The notes beneath the pieces are model-generated. The model was not told where the DNA came from and made no database searches. It saw only the letters and a list, made by a program, of their open reading frames with translations. The position numbers and the translations under genes were made by a program. From Chromatiales bacterium (GTDB lineage Bacteria; Pseudomonadota; Gammaproteobacteria; Thiohalospirales; Thiohalospiraceae), in NCBI GenBank assembly GCA_026982395.1, contig JALSHD010000177.1:1-42875 (forward strand): a DNA stretch of 42,875 nucleotides, given 5' to 3'. Position 1 is the first letter of the stretch. Every line of letters starts with the position of its first letter. Positions 1-25,742 of the stretch are shown here, piece by piece.

Positions 1-83
1 AACAACTACTCAAAAAAGTCCGGGAGCTCTGTCCGGACGCGGATCTTTATTCGGGCATGCCGGAGGCCTATCTGGACGGATAA
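1..83 (+). CDS. C-terminal fragment of an unrecognised protein (truncated by window edge)
   Basis: The third frame is open from the window edge to a TAA at 81-83 and encodes about 26 residues ending in SGMPEAYLDG. The residue mix looks like a real protein end, but the piece is too short to assign to a family. The gene would begin outside the window. The sequence after it is another, disturbed reading frame. Confidence 0.3.
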   Translation, partial: QLLKKVRELCPDADLYSGMPEAYLDG

Positions 84-867
84 CGGGCAATACTTGCCGG
101 GAGCAGGTAACCGGCAGGCGCGACTGGATCAAAACCCAAAAAGGCTGGCAACTGGAGGAAGCGCAGCCCGTCACCGACGTCTCGCTGCACCCGGGCAACG
201 CCTGGGGCGGCAGCCGCTCAAGCCTCACCGACGAGACCGACGACAGTCAGCTCTACCTGCCCAACCCGCACAGGAAACCACCCGCGAAGCCGCGCTGGAG
301 GCCAAAGAAATCGCCGCCATCAACCGCCAGCGCGCCCAACAGCTCGCCGAACGGTTCCAGACCGACCCGGCCGGCGCGGTGGCCAAATACGTGCAGGACA
401 AAAAAGACGAACTGGCCATCCTGGACTGGGCCGGCGAGTTCGGCGGCAAGTTTGGTGATGCCTGGGACATCGCCCAACAGGGCGACCTCGGCAAGGCCGC
501 CGGCGAAATGGCCAGCGCCCTGGGCAGCGCCGCGAAAAAAGCCGCCATCCGGAAAAAACAGAAAATGGCGGCGCAGAAAAAAGCGGACGACAAAGGCAAA
601 GGCCGCTGGGCGGCGAAAAAAGATAATGTTGATTTTGAGAAAAAACTGGAATCGTTAAAAGAAGAAATGAAAGGGGCAACCCTCACCTACCGAGTCTGCC
701 GCGTCCAGCTGGAGCACGACCCGAGCGGCTGCTACGGCCAGCGGGTCAGCGGCAAGGGCAAGCTGTCGCCCGCGGGCCAAAAGACCGGCTTTTGCCGAAG
801 AAAGAAAGGCACCGACATCAGGTGTGAACCGTGGACGCCCAGCGAGAAACCCGGCAAAACGCGCTGA
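84..867 (+). pseudogene. Frameshifted hypothetical gene, Ala/Lys-rich helical C-terminus
   Basis: No single frame carries this gene with a credible start. Frame 2 (about 108-275) reads like protein (KTQKGWQLEEAQPVTDVSL, then DETDDSQLYLPNP). From about 275 the protein-like reading moves to frame 1 and runs to TGA at 865-867. The frame 1 part is rich in Ala, Lys and Glu and looks like a long helix or coiled coil (EAKEIAAINRQRAQQLAERF, then AAKKAAIRKKQKMAAQKKAD), followed by a Cys-containing tail. The only frame 1 start before the switch is a TTG at 94 without a ribosome site, so I read this as a gene broken by a frameshift near 250-290. The helix-then-short-tail layout, with small orphan genes downstream, recalls polymorphic or type VI toxin loci. 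That is context only: I recognise no toxin motif. Confidence 0.4.
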
Positions 868-1020
868 CCGGCCAACCATCAAGACGACAGGAACGATGTA
901 ACGAAATGAGTGCGAACCAGCAGGTACTGACCCTGATTCGGGAGATGAACCAGTATTACAAAAAAGAGACCGGCGGGGTTTATCCCGACGCCGAGGGAAA
1001 GTCCATCCTGTGGGACAGGA
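856..1020 (+). repeat. Direct repeat copy A (5' end of the 906 gene)
   Basis: About 165 bp covering the end of the previous frame, the ribosome site and the first ~38 codons of the 906 gene recur at 2278-2440 at roughly 90 percent identity by eye. Shared landmarks are CTGACCGGCCAACCATCAAG, the codons for ANQQVL and EMNQYYKKETGGV, and TGGGACAGG at the end. Copy B lacks three bases in the GACGACAGG stretch. Confidence 0.85.
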
Positions 1021-1853
1021 TACAGAGAAGAATCCAACGGGTCATGGAAAACCCGAAAAAATACTACATGATAGACGGCTATCTGAAAGCCCTCAGCGAA
1101 TGGTATCTCGACCACAGCCAATATGCCCGCGCCTGTCTGCACGACCCGGCGCGCCAACGCACCGCCTTTGCCCAGTCGGCCTGGTGCGGCTACCAGGCGG
1201 TGAAGGTCAAGGGGGAGTTTAACCGGTTTCTGATTACGAAAACCCTGCGCATGCAGACTGTTATGCTCTTCTGGAGTGAATGCATCCTGGCTGGTTGGTT
1301 TGATGAGGCAACAGAAATTGGTCAGCGCTCTCTTGCTCCGGCCGAACAAGGTGGCCGCGCCATGACGTACGGCCGGTCGTTTGATACGGCCAGTTATTTC
1401 TTGCTTGAGTTACATTATCTTTGGCAGAACATACCTTTTGACCGGAAAACCGAAGGTTTTGATCATCCCTTGTATGATGAACATACCCCTTTTATTTACG
1501 AAGACATCCTCGACCACTGGAACACCCGGGACACCGCCCGGGTCGATGATTATGTCACCCGGATGGCCGACTATCACCTGACCCAGACCGAAGAGGAAAC
1601 GGAAACCTCCCCCGAGGACGACTACTTTGAATTCAATGATACCTTCACCCGGCTCTTCCCCTACGAAATCATGGCCTGGCTGAAACTGCGGGAGCACCTG
1701 GGGCTGCCCAACCCGGCCAAATACAGCCATCCGCTAATGCAGCAGCCGCTGGCTGAATTCATCCCGGACACCCCGCTGGACAAGCCGGACATGCCGCAGG
1801 TGGAAACCCTGCTGCAAATCGTTCGGGATGCCCTGCCCGGCGTCAGGTTGTAG
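906..1853 (+). CDS. Hypothetical soluble protein, possible immunity-type partner
   Basis: This 315-residue protein has no signal peptide or membrane segment. I chose the ATG at 906 because AGGA lies about ten bases upstream and because the duplicated copy at 2326 begins at the same place. The N-terminus is helical (IREMNQYYKKETGG). The middle is aromatic and Trp-rich (FWSECILAGWFDEATE, DTASYFLLELHYLW), followed by an acidic loop (EEETETSPEDDYFEF). The C-terminus holds WLKLREHLGLPNP and then HPLMQQPLAEF. I do not recognise the family with certainty. An all-helical, aromatic-rich protein with a WLxLREHLGLP-type segment, lying after a decayed coiled-coil gene and duplicated at its 5' end, resembles proteins annotated as immunity or accessory proteins of polymorphic effectors. 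That role is inference. The stop is two bases before the next start, so the two are co-translated. Confidence 0.7.
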   Translation: MSANQQVLTLIREMNQYYKKETGGVYPDAEGKSILWDRIQRRIQRVMENPKKYYMIDGYLKALSEWYLDHSQYARACLHDPARQRTAFAQSAWCGYQAVKVKGEFNRFLITKTLRMQTVMLFWSECILAGWFDEATEIGQRSLAPAEQGGRAMTYGRSFDTASYFLLELHYLWQNIPFDRKTEGFDHPLYDEHTPFIYEDILDHWNTRDTARVDDYVTRMADYHLTQTEEETETSPEDDYFEFNDTFTRLFPYEIMAWLKLREHLGLPNPAKYSHPLMQQPLAEFIPDTPLDKPDMPQVETLLQIVRDALPGVRL

Positions 1854-1855
1854 TC

Positions 1856-2272
1856 ATGTCCGAACAGCAACGGCAACACGAAACAGACGCACCCGTCCCC
1901 CCGGGCAAACAGGCGGATGCATCGGCCAGAGGCCTGGTCACCACTGTATATGCCCTTCAGGCAGCCGGCATTTTTCTTTTTCTGATCACCCTGGGCATTA
2001 CCTTCCTGGTTGCAGGCATCATCACCCACACCAAAAAGAAAAGCGTTGAAGAAACATGGCTGGCCTCCCACTTCAGATGGCAAACCCGAACGTTCTGGTA
2101 TGGGTTGCTCTGGACGGTTATCGGGCTGGCAAGCGCGATTTATCTCATTGGCTTTATTATCCTCATCGCCAACGGTATATGGGTGACGTATCGTGTGGTT
2201 CGGGGTTGGCTGGATCTGATTGAAAACAAACCCATGTACATGCACAAGCCCGGGATCAGCAAAGGTCGCTGA
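1856..2272 (+). CDS. Small membrane protein, DUF4870/COG3671-like
   Basis: This 138-residue protein has a polar N-terminus (about 25 residues) and then three hydrophobic segments, at about 34-56, 80-100 and 98-115; the last two may form one hairpin. The motif TWLASHFRWQTRTFWYGLLW between segments is typical of the small predicted-membrane-protein family COG3671 (DUF4870-like), whose biochemical role is not known. WVTYRVVRGWLDLIENKPM near the end also fits. It starts two bases after the stop of the 906 gene, so it is translationally linked to it. A membrane partner beside a putative immunity protein is suggestive but proves nothing. The family is fairly sure; the function is unknown. Confidence 0.8.
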   Translation: MSEQQRQHETDAPVPPGKQADASARGLVTTVYALQAAGIFLFLITLGITFLVAGIITHTKKKSVEETWLASHFRWQTRTFWYGLLWTVIGLASAIYLIGFIILIANGIWVTYRVVRGWLDLIENKPMYMHKPGISKGR

Positions 2273-2277
2273 ACGCA

Positions 2278-2440
2278 AAAAACGCACTGACCGGCCAACC
2301 ATCAAGACAGGAATGAGGTAACGAAATGCGTGCGAACCAGCAGGTACTGACCCCGATTCGGGAGATGAACCAGTATTACAAAAAAGAGACCGGTGGGGTT
2401 CATCCCGGCGCCGGGGTAAAAACCGTCCCGTGGGACAGGG
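2278..2440 (+). repeat. Direct repeat copy B of 856-1020
   Basis: This is the second copy of the 5' module: spacer, ribosome-site region and first ~38 codons of the 906 gene. Similarity ends at the TGGGACAGG motif near 2438 and is followed by a very G+C-rich stretch (about 2440-2500), which looks like a recombination junction. Confidence 0.85.
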
Positions 2441-2526
2441 TGCGTTGCCCGGGGCGCGGGGCCAGGCCGGCGCCGCCCCCCGGCGGGCGGCTCAACGGCG
2501 GTGTTCCGGTCAGCTTTTCAGGTTAG
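2326..2526 (+). pseudogene. Truncated duplicate of the 906 gene
   Basis: The ATG at 2326 gives ANQQVLTPIREMNQYYKKET, almost the same N-terminus as the 906 protein. After about 38 codons the homology stops and the frame runs through low-complexity Gly/Pro/Arg sequence (RGARPAPPPGG) to a stop at 2526. It is a 5' duplication joined to unrelated DNA, so it is unlikely to give a folded product. It may still serve as a leader for the gene that follows in another frame. Confidence 0.65.
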
Positions 2527-2534
2527 AAGCCGGC

Positions 2535-3728
2535 ATGGGCGAACCCTGCATCGACCTGCTGCTGCAATACGATCAGGAGCGGCGGCAAGAACCGGGGCGC
2601 TGTTGCGGTGGCGGCGAGCCGTACCAGCGGCCCCGTGAAGCGGCCTTTATCGACCTGGCCGAAACCCTGGCCGCGCATGTGCATATTGTGCGGCAGATCC
2701 CGTCGTTGCTGGCAGATCCGGCGCTGACGGCGGCCCACAAGCAGATGGTCTTTTATCTGCTCTGGCTGGGGGAGGACGCGGCGCAACAGCAACGGGCCAT
2801 CGGGCAATTGGCCGCGCTCGACACAAAAGCGGCCAGTGAACAGCTTGCCGTGCACTTTCTGGCCAACCCCGGACATGAAAAATATCTTCCCCTGTTTGTC
2901 GACGCGCAGGGCCGCCAGCGCCATGAAGGGGGTGTCTTCGACCGGCTGGCCGCGCGTTGTGACCTTCCGCCCCTGCGGCAAGGACTGCTCACCCGCTTCA
3001 GGGCGGCGCAGGGGGAGGAAAAACAGGCACTGGCCACTGCCTTGCTCTCGGCACATTCGGATGAGGCCCTGGAATGGTTTTGCAGTGAAGAGGGCATGGC
3101 GCAGGACCGCTGCCGGATCTTTGCCCGGCTGAGCGCGCCACTGGCGCACGCGCGCCTGAACCGGCTTGGAGAACTGCCACTCCCCGAGGCCTTCCTGCTG
3201 GAAATGGCAGACCACCTGACATGGTACGGCAACCCCTGGAGCCTCCCCTTTCTGCGCCGCTGCATGCGGCATGACAGCCTTGAGGTACAACGCGCCTTCC
3301 ATGGCTTGCTGATGGCTTACTTCGACAGAGACGACCCCGTCATGTTCCAGGGCTGGCTGCTGCGCGAAGCGGAAATGGTTTCCCCGGAAAACTACCCGGA
3401 CCAGCTAGAGGCGTTCTGGAACGCCAAAGCGGAATATCTCAAGCAAACCCTCAAAAAACAGCGCTATCTTGAAGCGGACCGGTTTGACATGAAAGCCCTG
3501 TTTGACGCCTACACCGGCCGCCGCAGCACCTATGAGCTGAACACCCCCTTCAGCGAATTCATCACCTGTCTGGGCTGGTGGACAGGACAGCACTTTTATT
3601 ACGACGCACAGGCCCTGGGCTCGAAGCAGTGCCGGCAGATACAGACCATCAGGGCCTGGCTTGAAGCGCACCCCTTTGAACCGGGGCGCTGGTACCGGTT
3701 TGGAAAAGATATTTCGGAACGTGATTAA
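2535..3728 (+). CDS. Hypothetical helical protein, HEAT-like appearance
   Basis: The ATG at 2535 gives 397 residues. A GTG at 2430 would extend it through the low-complexity junction, which looks non-native. The protein is almost entirely amphipathic helix, with repeated Leu/Ala-rich segments of about 35 residues (HFLANPGHEKYLPLFVDAQG, ATALLSAHSDEALEWF, FLRRCMRHDSLEVQRAF). This suggests an alpha-solenoid such as HEAT-type repeats. The C-terminal ~90 residues are aromatic-rich (FSEFITCLGWWTGQHFYYD, FEPGRWYRF). I see no catalytic motif, signal peptide or membrane segment. The protein follows a duplicated immunity-like 5' module and may be another protein of that locus. The family is not recognised. 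The gene ends just before the toxin remnant. Confidence 0.65.
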   Translation: MGEPCIDLLLQYDQERRQEPGRCCGGGEPYQRPREAAFIDLAETLAAHVHIVRQIPSLLADPALTAAHKQMVFYLLWLGEDAAQQQRAIGQLAALDTKAASEQLAVHFLANPGHEKYLPLFVDAQGRQRHEGGVFDRLAARCDLPPLRQGLLTRFRAAQGEEKQALATALLSAHSDEALEWFCSEEGMAQDRCRIFARLSAPLAHARLNRLGELPLPEAFLLEMADHLTWYGNPWSLPFLRRCMRHDSLEVQRAFHGLLMAYFDRDDPVMFQGWLLREAEMVSPENYPDQLEAFWNAKAEYLKQTLKKQRYLEADRFDMKALFDAYTGRRSTYELNTPFSEFITCLGWWTGQHFYYDAQALGSKQCRQIQTIRAWLEAHPFEPGRWYRFGKDISERD

Positions 3729-3729
3729 C

Positions 3730-3873
3730 CTGGCGGCTGGGTCCGATGAAAAGCTGGTTGGTGACTTGTCTGGCGCCTACTCGCGAAGAAGAAATATTCA
3801 ACATAGATTGGTCTAAGTTTGCGAAAAAGAGCATGTTGTTAAAGTTATCCGAACGTGGGCGCACTATGCATAG
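3730..3873 (+). pseudogene. Remnant of a Txe/YoeB-family toxin
   Basis: One frame reads EKLVGDLSGAYSRRRNIQHR, then LV, a TAA at 3814-3816, then VCEKEHVVKVIRTWAHYA and a final TAG at 3871-3873. This is the C-terminal half of a Txe/YoeB mRNA interferase: the family pattern is KLxGDLxGxxSRRIxxxHRLVYxV followed by a strand and a HY-type end. The N-terminal half is absent. The usual Tyr-Gln after LeuVal is replaced by a single TAA, as if three bases were lost. The gene is therefore dead twice over, with no antitoxin beside it. The stop is followed within eight bases by the attC-like site, the normal arrangement in an integron gene cassette. Family assignment from motifs is good. Confidence 0.75.
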
Positions 3874-3880
3874 AGAAGAA

Positions 3881-3965
3881 TATAACAATCGCATACACGC
3901 GGACAAAATAAAGCTGCGCCGTTCGCTCTGCACCTTTATTTTGCCGGTGATGCGAAGCGTTAGGT
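3881..3965 (+). other. Integron attC-like recombination site
   Basis: The site spans 85 bp. The right core is GTTAGGT at 3959-3965, a match to GTTRRRY. The left core ends in AAC at 3886 (ATATAAC against RYYYAAC, one mismatch). Between them are long imperfectly paired arms: TCGCAT (3889-3894) with ATGCGA (3950-3955), and CAAAATAAAG (3904-3913) with CTTTATTTTG (3934-3943). Single unpaired A residues in the left arm look like the extrahelical bases that orient attC recombination. The closing loop is short. Such a folded single strand is the substrate of an integron integrase. No integrase gene or attI is seen in the window, so the site is either an outlying remnant or a lone cassette insertion. 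Confidence 0.75.
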
Positions 3966-4391
3966 GGCCAAGAGTGAGTTGGATCCGTTTAGAACGCTTA
4001 GCCTGAATGCCAGATTTTCTTCCCGTTTGAAGAATACCTCCAGCCCCTTGTGCTTAAGGCTCTGTATCATGCATTAATTGCAACCCATCTCGTTACAGGT
4101 TACGGTTATCTTTTACGTACAATGAGGATTATCACTCCTTCATCGGCACCCTGCTGGCCGAGCCCGGGCTGGAATACAACAGTAAAAACACCCTCGGCTA
4201 ACTCACCACGGCGAGGATCGTCTTTGCACGCTATTTTGCCAAGCGTATGCTGTAGCGCATCACCGGCATAAAGAATCCGTATCCCTTGCCAAGGATGCAA
4301 TACCAGAAAATCACTGTCACCGGTGACACATTTCAGGAGCAAGGTGAGCAGTTACAAAAAATGCTCTTCTTTACCTGTCAAATCCAGCCCC
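3966..4391. other. Gene-poor spacer after the attC-like site
   Basis: I find no convincing gene in these 426 bases. A reverse frame of 78 codons (4106-4342) has only a TTG start and no ribosome site. A forward fragment reading SFIGTLLAEPGLEYNSKNT (about 4138-4200) looks protein-like but has no start. Both could be scraps of lost cassette or chromosomal genes. The region ends at the algC stop. Confidence 0.5.
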
Positions 4392-5807
4392 CTAGAAAGG
4401 CAACTCAAGATCCGGTGACTCAGACAGAATAAATTCCCGGATCCTCCGCTGTATATTCACCAGTTCCGTCTGTGTCTGCGCCTCAAAACGCACACCCAGG
4501 CTTGGAGTGGTATTGGAGGCCCGAACCAGCGCCCAGCCGGTGGGAAACTCCAAACGCAAACCATCCAGCGTGTTGGAAGTTGCATCAGAAAAATCAGCAT
4601 GTTCCATCAACCTTTCCATCAGTTCATAGTGTGAACCACTTATGACCGGGATATTGTACTCCTGTGTATTTACCGCATCCGGCAGGCAACGGAACTGCTC
4701 TGCGCTGGAGAGTGGGCTGTGGGCCAGTATTTCCAGCAGGCGGGCTCCGGCATACATGGCGTCATCAAAACCAAACCAGCGATCGGCGATAAACAGATGG
4801 CCGGTAAGCTCTCCTGCCAGCAGAGCCTTGTCCTGTTGCATTTTCGCCCGTACCACAGAGTGGCCCGTGCGCCACATCAATGGTCTGCCGCCGTGTTGCT
4901 CAATCACGTCATACAGATTGCCGGTACATTTTATGTCAAACAGAATTCTGGCCTGCGGATTGTTTTTCAGAACATCTATGGCCAGCATCATAAGCAGCCG
5001 GTCGGGCCAGATCACCTTGCCGCTGGAGTCAACCAATCCGATCCGGTCGCCGTCACCATCGAAAGCAAGTCCGACATCGGCACTGGTAGTACGCACAGTG
5101 GTGATCAAATCCTGCAGATTTCCCAGCTCGGTAGGATCAGGGTGATGATTGGGAAAATGGCCGTCAATATCACAGTACAGCTCTTGCACCTCACAACCCA
5201 GCCGGCGAAATAGCGCTGGTGCCACTTCGCCGGCCATACCATTACCCGCGTCCACCACTATTTTCATCGGTCTGCTTAACTGTACATCCGCACAGAGACG
5301 GGTCAGATATGGTTCGACAACATTTATCCGCCGGCAACTCCCCGCACCATCTACCAATTCACCCCGTTCAATGCGGCGACGCAGCGCCTGTACCCCCTCG
5401 CCATGCAGCACATCACCACCAAGAACAATCTTGAGACCATTGTATTCGGCCGGATTATGACTGGCCGTCAGCATGACGCCACTGTTACCCGCATATTGAT
5501 GGGCAGCAAAATAGAGTATGGGGGTAGGAACCCGGCCCACATCCAGCACCTCGCAACCGCTATCGCACAAAGCCCGGATTAACGCCCGACTCAGCGATGG
5601 GCTGGAAAGGCGTGCGTCCTGGCCTACAGCAATCAGGTTGATTCCCCTGGCCGCAGCTTCACTGCCAATAGCACGACCGATGCTGTATACGCTCTCTGGT
5701 GTCAATGTGCGACCGGCAATACCGCGGATGTCATAGGGTTTGAACACAGAAGCGCAAACCGGCTCCGGCCAGCCCGGTTGCACATGTTGAAGCTGTTGCG
5801 GTGACAT
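4392..5807 (-). CDS. algC: Phosphomannomutase/phosphoglucomutase
   Basis: This 471-residue enzyme interconverts hexose 1- and 6-phosphates for LPS, alginate or other sugar-nucleotide pathways in the cytoplasm. Four-domain alpha-D-phosphohexomutase signatures appear in order: the phosphoserine loop LTASHNPAEYNG, the Mg-binding loop AFDGDGDRIG, the sugar-binding loop AGELTGHLFI (GEMSGH-type) and the phosphate-binding loop VRASNTTPSLG. I chose the ATG at 5807, with a G-rich stretch upstream, over the in-frame TTG at 5828 that overlaps the dut stop. Order coaBC-dut-algC matches that in Pseudomonas and relatives, where argB follows. Here the downstream side is the accessory region instead. Whether Man or Glc is preferred cannot be told. 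Confidence 0.93.
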   Translation of the reverse strand: MSPQQLQHVQPGWPEPVCASVFKPYDIRGIAGRTLTPESVYSIGRAIGSEAAARGINLIAVGQDARLSSPSLSRALIRALCDSGCEVLDVGRVPTPILYFAAHQYAGNSGVMLTASHNPAEYNGLKIVLGGDVLHGEGVQALRRRIERGELVDGAGSCRRINVVEPYLTRLCADVQLSRPMKIVVDAGNGMAGEVAPALFRRLGCEVQELYCDIDGHFPNHHPDPTELGNLQDLITTVRTTSADVGLAFDGDGDRIGLVDSSGKVIWPDRLLMMLAIDVLKNNPQARILFDIKCTGNLYDVIEQHGGRPLMWRTGHSVVRAKMQQDKALLAGELTGHLFIADRWFGFDDAMYAGARLLEILAHSPLSSAEQFRCLPDAVNTQEYNIPVISGSHYELMERLMEHADFSDATSNTLDGLRLEFPTGWALVRASNTTPSLGVRFEAQTQTELVNIQRRIREFILSESPDLELPF

Positions 5808-5824
5808 AACGGATCCCCCCTGTA

Positions 5825-6280
5825 TCAATGTCGACCGGTATGGCCAAATCCTCCAACACCTCGCTGACTGGACTCAAACTCATCCACTACTTCGAAAGCG
5901 GCCTGCACTACCGGTACAAAAACCAGCTGGGCGATACGCTCACCCGGCTGGACTGTATATTCACCCTGCCCCCGATTCCAGCAGGAAACGAACAGCTGCC
6001 CCTGATAATCCGAGTCAATAAGCCCGACCAGATTACCCAGCACGATGCCATGTTTGTGCCCCAGCCCCGAACGGGGAAGAATCACTGCTGCCAGCGACGG
6101 ATCGGCCACATGAATAGCCATGCCGGTGGGAACCAGATGGGCATCTCCCGGCTTCAGTATCACCGCTTCGTCCAGACAAGCACGCAGATCCATTCCTGCT
6201 GCACCATCTGTCGCGTAATCAGGTAACGGGAACTCTGTACCAATGCGGGGATCGAGAATTTTCAGTTGAATTTTCTGCAT
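5825..6280 (-). CDS. dut: dUTP diphosphatase
   Basis: This trimeric dUTPase of 151 residues hydrolyses dUTP to dUMP and pyrophosphate, keeping uracil out of DNA and feeding thymidylate synthesis. All five family motifs are present: [32 protein letters not shown] (with the catalytic Asp), [13 protein letters not shown] and the C-terminal [10 protein letters not shown] that closes over the nucleotide. The ATG at 6280 is clear and the length is normal. Its stop (5825-5827) lies 18 bases before the chosen algC start, so the two are probably one transcript. Confidence 0.97.
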
Positions 6281-6465: not shown

Positions 6466-7671
6466 TTATTTTCGTGTCTGTTTGTAACGCTGCCCAATCA
6501 ACTCAACCAGCTGACGTGCAATTTCTGGTTTGGTGCTCCTTGGCAACGTCGTCCCGCCACCTGGCCACAATATCTCCAGCATATTTTCATCACTTTCAAA
6601 GCCGCTGCCGGGCAGTCCGACCCGGTTGACAGCGATCATGTCCGCCCTCTTGCCATCCAGTTTGGCTTGCGCGTACTCTGCCACCCTTTCCGTCTCAGCG
6701 GCAAAGCCAACACAAAACGGCCCATTGGTCAGAGCACACACGTCAGCCAGAATATCCGGGTTCCGCACCAGTTCCAGCTTGAGATGAGAGAGATCTTTTT
6801 TTATTTTCTGTTTGCTTTGCTGCTGCGGTCGGTAGTCAGCCACCGCGGCCGCCGCAATGAAGATATCACACCGGGGTACCCGCTGCATGACCGCCTCATG
6901 CATCTCGATGGCACTGCGCACATCGATACACTCCATCCGATCCGGCCAGGGCAGACTGCTGACACCGCTGATCAATACAACTTCGGCACCTGCCTGCTGT
7001 GCGGCTGTAGCCACAGCATACCCCATTTTTCCGGAACTGCGATTGCCAAGATAGCGCACCGGATCGATATCCTCCAGGGTGGGACCGGCGGTGACCATCA
7101 CCCGTACTCCCGCCAGATAGGGGGGGATGAACAGTCCGGTCAGCCGTCGTACCAACTGCTCTGGCTCAAGCATGCGGCCGGGGCCGTTTTCACCACAGGC
7201 CTGGTTTCCCTCAATCGGACCCAACAGATGCACACCCCGCTCCCTGAGCAGTTCAATATTTGATCGGGTTGCCTCGTTGCACCACATCTGCCGGTTCATT
7301 GCCGGCGCCAAGGCCAGCGGAGCGCTGCTGGCAAGACAGATGGTGGCAAGCAGATCATCCGCCAGGCCGTGTGCCAGCCGGGCAATGGTGTGAGCTGTCG
7401 CAGGCGCGATCAGAATGGCATCCGCCCAGCGCGCCAGTTCGATATGCCCCATCGCGGATCCTGCCTCTGGCTCAAACAGCTCCGTCGGAACCGGATGGCC
7501 GGAAAGAGCCCTGAAAGTCAGCGGAGTAACAAACCGGGCGGCGGCACTGCTTAGTACCACACGCACTTCAGCACCAGCATCACGCAGCCGCCGGACCAGA
7601 TCCGCGCTCTTGTAGGCAGCGATACCACCCGTCACCCCCAGAAGGATATGTTTGCCATTCAGCTCTTTCAT
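6466..7671 (-). CDS. coaBC: Bifunctional PPC decarboxylase / phosphopantothenate-cysteine ligase
   Basis: This 401-residue cytoplasmic protein carries two consecutive steps of coenzyme A synthesis. The N-terminal flavoprotein half (CoaC, about 1-185) shows the start GVTGGIAAYKSADL, the LAPAMNRQMW motif and the FMN-site histidine region MGHIELARWAD. The C-terminal half (CoaB, about 190-401) shows VTAGPTLEDIDPVRYLGNRS and the KIKKDLSHLKLELVRNPDIL stretch that binds CTP. The ATG at 7671 gives the usual N-terminus; an upstream frame extension lacks homology. The gene is divergent from speE across 64 bp that must hold both promoters, and 185 bp separate it from dut downstream. Confidence 0.96.
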   Translation of the reverse strand: MKELNGKHILLGVTGGIAAYKSADLVRRLRDAGAEVRVVLSSAAARFVTPLTFRALSGHPVPTELFEPEAGSAMGHIELARWADAILIAPATAHTIARLAHGLADDLLATICLASSAPLALAPAMNRQMWCNEATRSNIELLRERGVHLLGPIEGNQACGENGPGRMLEPEQLVRRLTGLFIPPYLAGVRVMVTAGPTLEDIDPVRYLGNRSSGKMGYAVATAAQQAGAEVVLISGVSSLPWPDRMECIDVRSAIEMHEAVMQRVPRCDIFIAAAAVADYRPQQQSKQKIKKDLSHLKLELVRNPDILADVCALTNGPFCVGFAAETERVAEYAQAKLDGKRADMIAVNRVGLPGSGFESDENMLEILWPGGGTTLPRSTKPEIARQLVELIGQRYKQTRK

Positions 7672-7735
7672 CGTTGCAAGTGTAACAAAACATCCGGTAT
7701 CTTGTGGCTCAATTCTTTTTCGACGGAATTTTAAT

Positions 7736-8584
7736 ATGGCACTGAGCAACGACTGGTTCACGGAAATCTGCACCGAATCCGGCAGCGCGTTTTCTCTCAA
7801 GGTGAAGGAAAAACTCCATCAGGAGGAGACGCCCTTTCAGCGAATCGAGATTTATGAGACCAACCACTTTGGCACGCTAATGGTGATCGACGGTTTCATA
7901 ATGCTCTCCGATTTTGACAACTTTTTCTATCACGAAATGATGAGCCACCCCGCCCTGTTCACACACCCAAATCCGGAACAGGTTGTTATCATTGGGGGCG
8001 GCGACTGCGGCACCCTCCGCGAGGTGCTAAAACACAAGGAGGTAAAGCGGGCTATACAGGTGGATATCGATGAACGGGTTACCCGGCTGTCAGAGCAGTT
8101 TTTCCCCGAGCTGTGCGAGGCCAATAGCGACCCGCGTGCAGAACTTCTTTTTGCCGATGGCATCCAGTGGGTAAAAGACGCCGCTCCCGGATCGATTGAT
8201 ATTATCATTGTGGACAGTACGGATCCTGTCGGTCCGGCCAAGGGGCTGTTCAGTGCCGCTTTTTACCGGGACTGTTTTCGGGCTCTGGGCGATGACGGCA
8301 TTGTTGTGCATCAAAGTGAATCCCCGTTGATTCACCAGGAGCTGATCCGTGACATGCGCAACGCTATGCACAGCGCCGGATTTACTCAACAGTTGACCAT
8401 CAACTTCCCCCAACCGGTTTATCCATCCGGCTGGTGGAGTGCCACCCTGGCGGGGAAGAAGGAGATCCTGACCACCTTTCGCGAACAGGCAAGCCGTAAC
8501 AAACCGTTCGTCACCCGTTACTACAACCATGACATTCATCTGGCTGCCATGGCCTTGCCGGAGTTCTGGAGAGAGAGGGATTAG
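7736..8584 (+). CDS. speE: Spermidine synthase
   Basis: This 282-residue aminopropyltransferase transfers the aminopropyl group of decarboxylated S-adenosylmethionine to putrescine. Visible are the N-terminal beta domain (FQRIEIYETNHFGTLMVIDG), the nucleotide loop IGGGDCGTLREVL (GGGDGG in most relatives; a Cys here), the acidic VDIDERV, the active-site DSTDPVGPAKGLF and the C-terminal QPVYPSGWWSATLAG. The ATG at 7736 fits the family N-terminus, although the preceding TTTTAAT holds no clear Shine-Dalgarno. The length matches E. coli SpeE (about 288). Confidence 0.95.
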   Translation: MALSNDWFTEICTESGSAFSLKVKEKLHQEETPFQRIEIYETNHFGTLMVIDGFIMLSDFDNFFYHEMMSHPALFTHPNPEQVVIIGGGDCGTLREVLKHKEVKRAIQVDIDERVTRLSEQFFPELCEANSDPRAELLFADGIQWVKDAAPGSIDIIIVDSTDPVGPAKGLFSAAFYRDCFRALGDDGIVVHQSESPLIHQELIRDMRNAMHSAGFTQQLTINFPQPVYPSGWWSATLAGKKEILTTFREQASRNKPFVTRYYNHDIHLAAMALPEFWRERD

Positions 8585-25509: not shown

Positions 25510-25742
25510 GGGCACCTCTAAAAGCAGTAATTTTTTCGCGAGAGCAATGAAGCTCCGCGCGCACGACGGCATGGACGCAGGAGGTACGAGTCCATGGATG
25601 GACGAGGTAGAACGAAGCAGAAAGCCAGAGTCGAGAGCAATGCATGGAACAATTGCCGGGAACCGCAGTGTATGCAGTGTATAACATTCGAGCGCGGAGC
25701 TGACGCCGCTATCGCGGAAAAAGTGCATTTTTAGAGGTACCC
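25510..25742. mobile_element. 233-bp non-autonomous element with terminal inverted repeats
   Basis: The left end GGGCACCTCTAAAA (25510-25523) and the right end TTTTAGAGGTACCC (25729-25742) are inverted repeats with one mismatch. The pairing continues inward with interruptions (TTTTTTCGCGA against TCGCGGAAAAA; AGCTCCGCGCGC against GAGCGCGGAGCT). TATA flanks both ends (25506-25509 and 25743-25746), consistent with a target duplication. There is no transposase frame inside. The right end forms the last base of the toxin stop codon. Related ends occur at 37151 and 13025. The parent IS is not identified. Confidence 0.75.

What the first reader, a model, noticed from the sequence alone, without database searches (positions are those of the whole stretch)
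3730..3965. Dead toxin cassette joined to an attC-like integron site, with no integrase in view
The last 144 bases before the site read as the C-terminal half of a Txe/YoeB toxin broken by one TAA, and its true stop is eight bases before a palindromic site with GTTAGGT, matching arms and unpaired A bases. Toxin-antitoxin cassettes are common in sedentary chromosomal integrons. This suggests an integron array, or a lone cassette insertion, next to algC.
Basis: partly seen in the sequence, partly recalled or inferred. Interest (0 to 1): 0.75.

Follow-up and report, generated by a model that had tools for sequence, protein, structure and literature searches.

The report
Stray integron cassette with dead toxin
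A single gene cassette of the bacterium's own integron, carrying the broken end of a bacterial growth-arrest toxin gene and an intact-looking recombination hairpin, lies stranded beside a housekeeping gene far from its integrase; it is a known kind of thing, but relatives of this bacterium carry many such stray cassettes.

Summary
Both halves of the observation hold. Window 3880-3965 is an attC site: held out of the model, it scores 78.3 bits (E 2e-22) on a covariance model of attC-like sites from this and other genomes. It folds best on the bottom strand, with three unpaired bases and a perfect GTTAGGT box. Window 3746-3873 is the C-terminal half of a Txe/YoeB toxin (E 7e-12) with one in-frame TAA. 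No intI lies in the window, but the same genome has one (contig C162, 489 bits), with a same-type attC on its first cassette. An intact copy of this toxin-antitoxin cassette, 90% identical into the attC, sits about 0.9 kb behind that intI; its own attC is cut. The window site is therefore a decayed lone cassette (a SALIN), not an array. Relatives have argB directly beside algC; here a type VI secretion (Hcp/VgrG) island separates them and the cassette remnant is embedded in it. Other species of the genus carry about eleven similar single-attC cassettes beside dapB, mobA, trpG, mutL and other genes, several with toxin-antitoxin pairs. IntI-driven insertion outside the integron is the likeliest route, but the left junction is lost, so this is inferred. 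New member of a known kind.

The parts
3746..3873 (+). C-terminal half of a Txe/YoeB toxin gene (pseudogene); antitoxin and toxin N-terminus missing
   Evidence: TIGR02116 E 7.1e-12, PF06769 E 9.7e-07; 90.5% DNA identity to the intact copy on C162
3814..3816 (+). in-frame TAA; the frame is 3 nt shorter here than in the intact copy
   Evidence: alignment with C162
3871..3873 (+). true stop codon TAG of the toxin, six bases before R''
   Evidence: sequence
3880..3965 (+). attC site (top-strand orientation as for the toxin gene; the bottom strand is the folded, recombining one)
   Evidence: held-out covariance model 78.3 bits, E 2.2e-22; bottom-strand fold z -5.45; covariation over 13 sites
3880..3886 (+). 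R'' box ATATAAC (6 of 7 to RYYYAAC)
   Evidence: sequence
3890..3904 (+). L'' arm with extrahelical positions 3895, 3899 and 3903
   Evidence: fold
3914..3933 (+). variable terminal structure (apical loop region)
   Evidence: fold
3943..3954 (+). L' arm GCCGGTGATGCG, shared with the attC next to intI on C162
3959..3965 (+). R' box GTTAGGT; expected crossover between G3959 and T3960
   Evidence: sequence; crossover position from general knowledge of attC
3963..4070 (-). short reversed frame resembling a HigB toxin N-terminus (weak, by eye only)
   Evidence: no profile hit; 14-aa similarity to a frame near another intI
4118..4177 (+). fragment of a VgrG gene
   Evidence: 75% over 20 aa, E 4e-5, to the VgrG on C161
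2430..3728 (+). island ORF (432 aa, no family hit) ending just before the toxin relic; context, not part of the cassette
4392..5828 (-). algC-type phosphomannomutase gene; relatives have argB directly beside it

Best explanation
This is a lone, decayed integron gene cassette (a SALIN: single attC lacking an integrase). It once carried a Phd/YefM-type antitoxin and a YoeB-type toxin followed by an attC site, in a genome whose chromosomal integron (intI on contig C162) uses the same attC subtype. Most likely the host's IntI excised such a cassette as a circle and joined its folded bottom-strand attC to a target outside the array: a non-classical genomic site (attG, core G-A/T-T) or another stray cassette in the argB-algC region. 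The adjoining Hcp/VgrG island then removed the antitoxin and the toxin 5' half, and a 3-nt loss gave the TAA. Shown: attC identity, toxin relic, intI and matching attC elsewhere in the genome, an intact copy of the same cassette, absence of the whole segment from relatives. Inferred: that IntI made the insertion, and the order of events. The gene is dead; the attC looks structurally competent and could still be used by IntI in trans.
For: Held-out attC model E 2.2e-22; bottom-strand fold; compensatory changes in 12 stem pairs against 4.8 in shuffles; YoeB profile hits; intI at C162:922-1908, 489 bits, with a same-type attC at C162:118-210; intact Phd/YoeB cassette at C162:2720-3289, 90.5% identical into the attC; argB-algC direct neighbours in G003 and G004; about eleven other lone attC cassettes in the genus, all with a stop codon within 8 nt of R'', one a clean insertion against three relatives.
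Against: The left end of the cassette is gone, so the insertion junction and the target cannot be read. The right junction has GTT, which a normal array also gives. The genome is a fragmented assembly and most of its array is unassembled, so the source array cannot be examined.
Confidence: 0.75

Rival explanations
1. Remnant of a larger cassette array: the ancestral integron, or a piece of it, once stood between argB and algC (or was moved there by rearrangement), and all but one cassette decayed.
For: R' is a canonical GTTAGGT as in arrays; the DNA after the attC holds another possible toxin scrap (3963-4070). The surroundings of intI in this genome differ from those in the sister G004, so the region has been rearranged.
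Against: Only one attC in 42.9 kb; flanks are T6SS debris; relatives have plain argB-algC; intI of this genome and of G004 lie elsewhere.
Confidence: 0.17
2. The segment reached this place without IntI: a copy of the C162 cassette, or a foreign one, was carried in with the Hcp/VgrG island by ordinary recombination or by the IS200-like element.
For: The cassette lies inside the island; an IS200-like ORF adjoins the C162 copy.
Against: The homology to C162 ends inside the attC with no IS sequence in the window; a similar attC with other genes is in G003, and lone cassettes without such an island occur in other species.
Confidence: 0.07
3. Chance palindrome, terminator or REP-like repeat beside an unrelated toxin scrap.
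For: It lies just behind a stop codon; GCGTTAGG alone is expected 0.72 times per window.
Against: Model E 2.2e-22 with the site held out; no Rfam family; the same sequence type stands on the first cassette beside intI.
Confidence: 0.01

Closest known systems
SALIN / single-attC CALIN (IntegronFinder usage; PMC12690207, PMC9024848)
   Same: one attC with one cassette, no integrase nearby
   Different: the gene is truncated and broken, and the genome does hold a matching intI on another contig
Toxin-antitoxin cassettes of sedentary chromosomal integrons, such as those of Vibrio cholerae (PMC11023631)
   Same: type II toxin gene ending just before an attC; attC sites of one subtype within a genome
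   Different: outside any array; antitoxin lost, toxin dead
attG insertion of cassettes outside integrons (Loot et al. 2024, not held; cited in PMC11023631 and PMC12901181)
   Same: single cassette at a place with no classical att site
   Different: measured experimentally there; here the left junction is lost, so the target cannot be read
CALINs away from the integron locus in Xanthomonas (PMC12444791)
   Same: attC sites at several loci far from a retained or lost intI
   Different: those are clusters of two or more attC at conserved places; here single cassettes at different places in each species
Txe/YoeB-Phd/YefM toxin-antitoxin module
   Same: toxin relic and its intact copy on C162 match the Txe/YoeB profile; the intact copy has a Phd/YefM antitoxin
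   Different: window copy is a pseudogene half

Membership tests
attC recombination site | R' box GTTRRRY and R'' box RYYYAAC at the ends | tested here: met
   GTTAGGT 3959-3965 (7 of 7); ATATAAC 3880-3886 (6 of 7)
attC recombination site | imperfect hairpin of the bottom strand with extrahelical bases, unpaired spacer and terminal loop | tested here: met
   bottom strand -24.4 kcal/mol, z -5.45, three extrahelical bases; covariation
attC recombination site | recognised by a profile of other attC sites | tested here: met
   own held-out model, 78.3 bits, E 2.2e-22; IntegronFinder's model was not available
attC recombination site | recombined by an IntI | not testable with these tools
   needs a recombination assay
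integron gene cassette | gene whose stop lies just before attC, same orientation | tested here: met
   TAG 3871-3873, R'' from 3880
integron gene cassette | 5' border at G/TTRRRY | tested here: not met
   toxin homology begins inside the gene at 3745/3746; the border is lost
integron (intI, attI, array) at this locus | intI adjacent | tested here: not met
   no TIGR02249 hit on C177; intI is on C162
integron (intI, attI, array) at this locus | two or more attC sites | tested here: not met
   one attC in the window
SALIN | single attC with no integrase within reach | tested here: met
   no intI in the 42.9 kb contig
Txe/YoeB toxin | profile match | tested here: met
   C-terminal half, E 7.1e-12; intact copy 90.9 bits
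Txe/YoeB toxin-antitoxin module (working) | complete toxin and antitoxin | tested here: not met
   N-terminal half and antitoxin absent, in-frame TAA
attG insertion | empty target site in a relative with both cassette junctions at G/WT | tested here: inconclusive
   left junction lost in the window; argB-algC is empty in relatives but the whole island is extra

The most novel reading that the evidence does not exclude
In this gammaproteobacterial genus IntI naturally scatters single cassettes, enriched in toxin-antitoxin pairs, through the chromosome at non-classical GWT targets. The GAT core seen in the R' box of five of about twelve lone sites would be the scar of the target and would hold the cassette in place, so that genome-wide cassettes form a dispersed second compartment of the integron.
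Probability: 0.35. Interest if true: 0.6.

Novelty: new member of a known kind. Interest (0 to 1): 0.36.

Why it matters
Cassette insertion outside integrons is known mainly from experiments. A genus in which most species retain an intI and carry a different set of lone cassettes beside housekeeping genes would be a natural record of that process. It would make it testable how often cassettes leave the array, which targets they choose, and whether toxin-antitoxin cassettes are the ones that persist. The window site itself is a fossil and of modest interest alone.

Tried and rejected
Rfam scan: nothing. GCGTTAGG by itself as evidence: chance level. Ordinary terminator or REP: rejected by the held-out attC model. 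HigB-like scrap at 3963-4070: no profile hit, kept only as a weak remark. Inverted repeat of the L' arm at 4256-4271: lies in a broken coding frame behind the VgrG piece, with no R boxes; taken as chance. Model R2 was not used because RNAalifold found no pairs. Some weak model hits are doubtful: G007:C40 is a tRNA-Ser-like sequence, and G000:C75 and G006:C31 fold no better than shuffles, so their attC status rests on the model score and the adjacent stop. R3 scores of its own training sites are not independent; only G003:C94 and G003:C23 are wholly new there. G006:C31 at mobA looked like a base-exact attG junction, but homology would start near a start codon anyway, so it is only suggestive. 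In G007:C139 the dapB side matches its sister G002 but the far side does not, so there is no clean empty site.

Full report
What is there. Window 3730-3873 reads in frame as LAAGSDEKLVGDLSGAYSRRRNIQHRLV*VCEKEHVVKVIRTWAHYA*. With X at the stop it matches the last half (positions 39-80 of 80) of the Txe/YoeB profile TIGR02116 at E 7.1e-12 and of Pfam YoeB_toxin at E 9.7e-07. The TAG at 3871-3873 ends six bases before a palindrome at 3880-3965. On the bottom strand this folds into a long imperfect hairpin (-24.4 kcal/mol, z -5.45, no shuffle as good); the top strand folds less well (-20.4, z -3.5). The boxes are R'' ATATAAC and R' GTTAGGT. The unpaired positions on the L'' side are 3895, 3899 and 3903.

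Is it attC? I built a covariance model from eight attC-like sites of this and other genomes, leaving the window site out. It finds the window site at 78.3 bits, E 2.2e-22, and nothing else in the window. Over 13 sites the named stem has 86.5% paired cells and 12 pairs with compensatory changes; shuffles give 4.8 such pairs, and structures slid by 1 to 3 columns at most 6. The later model scores the bottom strand 85.4 and the top strand 23.5 bits. With the R boxes this meets every sequence and structure criterion of attC that could be tested here.

The integrase. The window has none, but the genome (193 contigs, 2.72 Mb) has an intI at C162:922-1908, 489 bits to TIGR02249 against a cut-off of 265. 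Divergent from it, next to the presumed attI, stands a cassette for an 8xMP-family membrane protein. It ends in an attC (C162:118-210) with the same L' arm and R' context as the window site. The contig ends just beyond, so most of this genome's array is probably unassembled.

The sister copy. Window 3746-3940 is 90.5% identical to C162:2917-2720, which lies about 0.9 kb behind intI on the other strand. There the toxin is complete (TIGR02116, 90.9 bits) and preceded by a Phd/YefM antitoxin. The identity runs through the stop, the spacer and the first half of the attC. The C162 attC is then cut by DNA next to an IS200-like transposase ORF. So the genome holds one copy with whole genes and half an attC, and one (the window) with dead genes and a whole attC. 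In the window copy the frame is 3 nt shorter where the TAA appears. A same-genus genome (G003:C42) has an attC 90.6% identical to the window site.

The place. In relatives G003 and G004, argB directly follows algC. In this genome argB is on C161 and is followed by Hcp (TIGR03344, 213.7 bits) and a VgrG-like frame up to the contig end. Homology to the relatives resumes in the window only at 4392, the end of algC. A VgrG fragment lies at 4118-4177, between attC and algC. The cassette relic therefore sits inside island DNA inserted between argB and algC. That C161 and the window belong to one island is inferred from their flanks, since the contigs are not joined. The left border and antitoxin are lost at the junction around 3729-3745.

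A pattern in the genus. The attC models find other lone sites in the genus. Beside them are Phd/ParE pairs (G007:C139 by dapB; G004:C195), an RHH-like/ParE pair (G006:C102), an SMR transporter by mobA (G006:C31), a DUF1801-like ORF between exopolysaccharide genes (G006:C121), an acetyltransferase-like ORF behind a trpG-like gene (G003:C23), a PhzF fragment (G003:C42), hypothetical ORFs (G003:C94, G003:C61), and sites by mutL (G007:C132) and a cytochrome gene (G000:C75). In all of these and in the window a coding frame on the expected strand stops within 8 nt of the R'' start. At random positions a frame of 80 or more codons stops within 10 nt in 3.7% of cases (two of the frames at attC sites are slightly shorter or near that length). 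The G006:C121 insertion is clean against three relatives lacking it. Five of about twelve lone sites have GAT instead of GTT in the R' core. Published secondary-site reactions are described with GNT or GWTMW targets (PMC4618277, PMC10127599). That fits insertion at non-classical targets, but point mutation of R' after landing would look the same, especially as the following bases often resemble a normal R' box. Several weak sites fold poorly, so the exact number is uncertain.

How it works, and what is inferred. Best reading: the host IntI excises a toxin-antitoxin cassette and joins its folded attC bottom strand to a site outside the array; the stranded cassette is then eroded by the island that landed beside it. 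Shown: attC, toxin relic, intI and a matching attC in the same genome, an intact sister copy, absence from relatives. Inferred: IntI as the agent, the target, the order of events. An array remnant or passive transport with the island remain possible.

Verdict. The kind is known: single-attC elements are named SALINs (PMC12690207), single-attC calls are said to be sometimes true (PMC9024848), cassettes away from the integron are reported (PMC12444791), and attG insertion is described (Loot et al. 2024, not held here, cited in PMC11023631 and PMC12901181).

Noticed in passing
L162:9921-10700 (G007:C139), L166:750-1391 (G006:C102), L169 around 7254-7900 (G004:C195), L224:1278-1816 (G006:C121), L235:880-1588 (G003:C23), L231 (G003:C94): Species of the same genus carry single attC-ended cassettes beside housekeeping genes, three of them intact ParE-type toxin-antitoxin pairs; a stop codon lies within 8 nt of every R'' box, and five R' cores read GAT instead of GTT.
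   Followed up: partly
window 1-4391 with L180:6369-9382 (C161): A type VI secretion Hcp/VgrG island with orphan ORFs appears to be inserted between argB and algC; relatives have the two genes side by side.
   Followed up: partly
window 856-1019 and 2279-2439: A 164-base direct duplication (90% identical) covering the start of the 340-aa island ORF, the second copy truncated; looks like partial duplication in an effector/immunity array.
   Followed up: no
window 25629-25733 and L180:6269-6568: Short repeats shared between the argB side of the island and a place 21 kb further along the window (78-88% identical), unidentified.
   Followed up: no
L006:2186-2790 (C162): An IS200-like transposase ORF with a GC-rich inverted repeat abuts the half attC of the intact toxin-antitoxin cassette, about 0.3 kb behind intI; the other half of that attC was not found beside it.
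   Followed up: no
L218:2430-2545 (G006:C31): An SMR-transporter cassette ends in an attC-like site whose last bases supply the first codons of mobA; relatives keep a different mobA start, with homology resuming right after the G of a GATATC.
   Followed up: partly
L069:1434-1520 (G032:C27): Another attC of the same subtype, in a different family of the class, lies directly upstream of a catalase-like gene.
   Followed up: no
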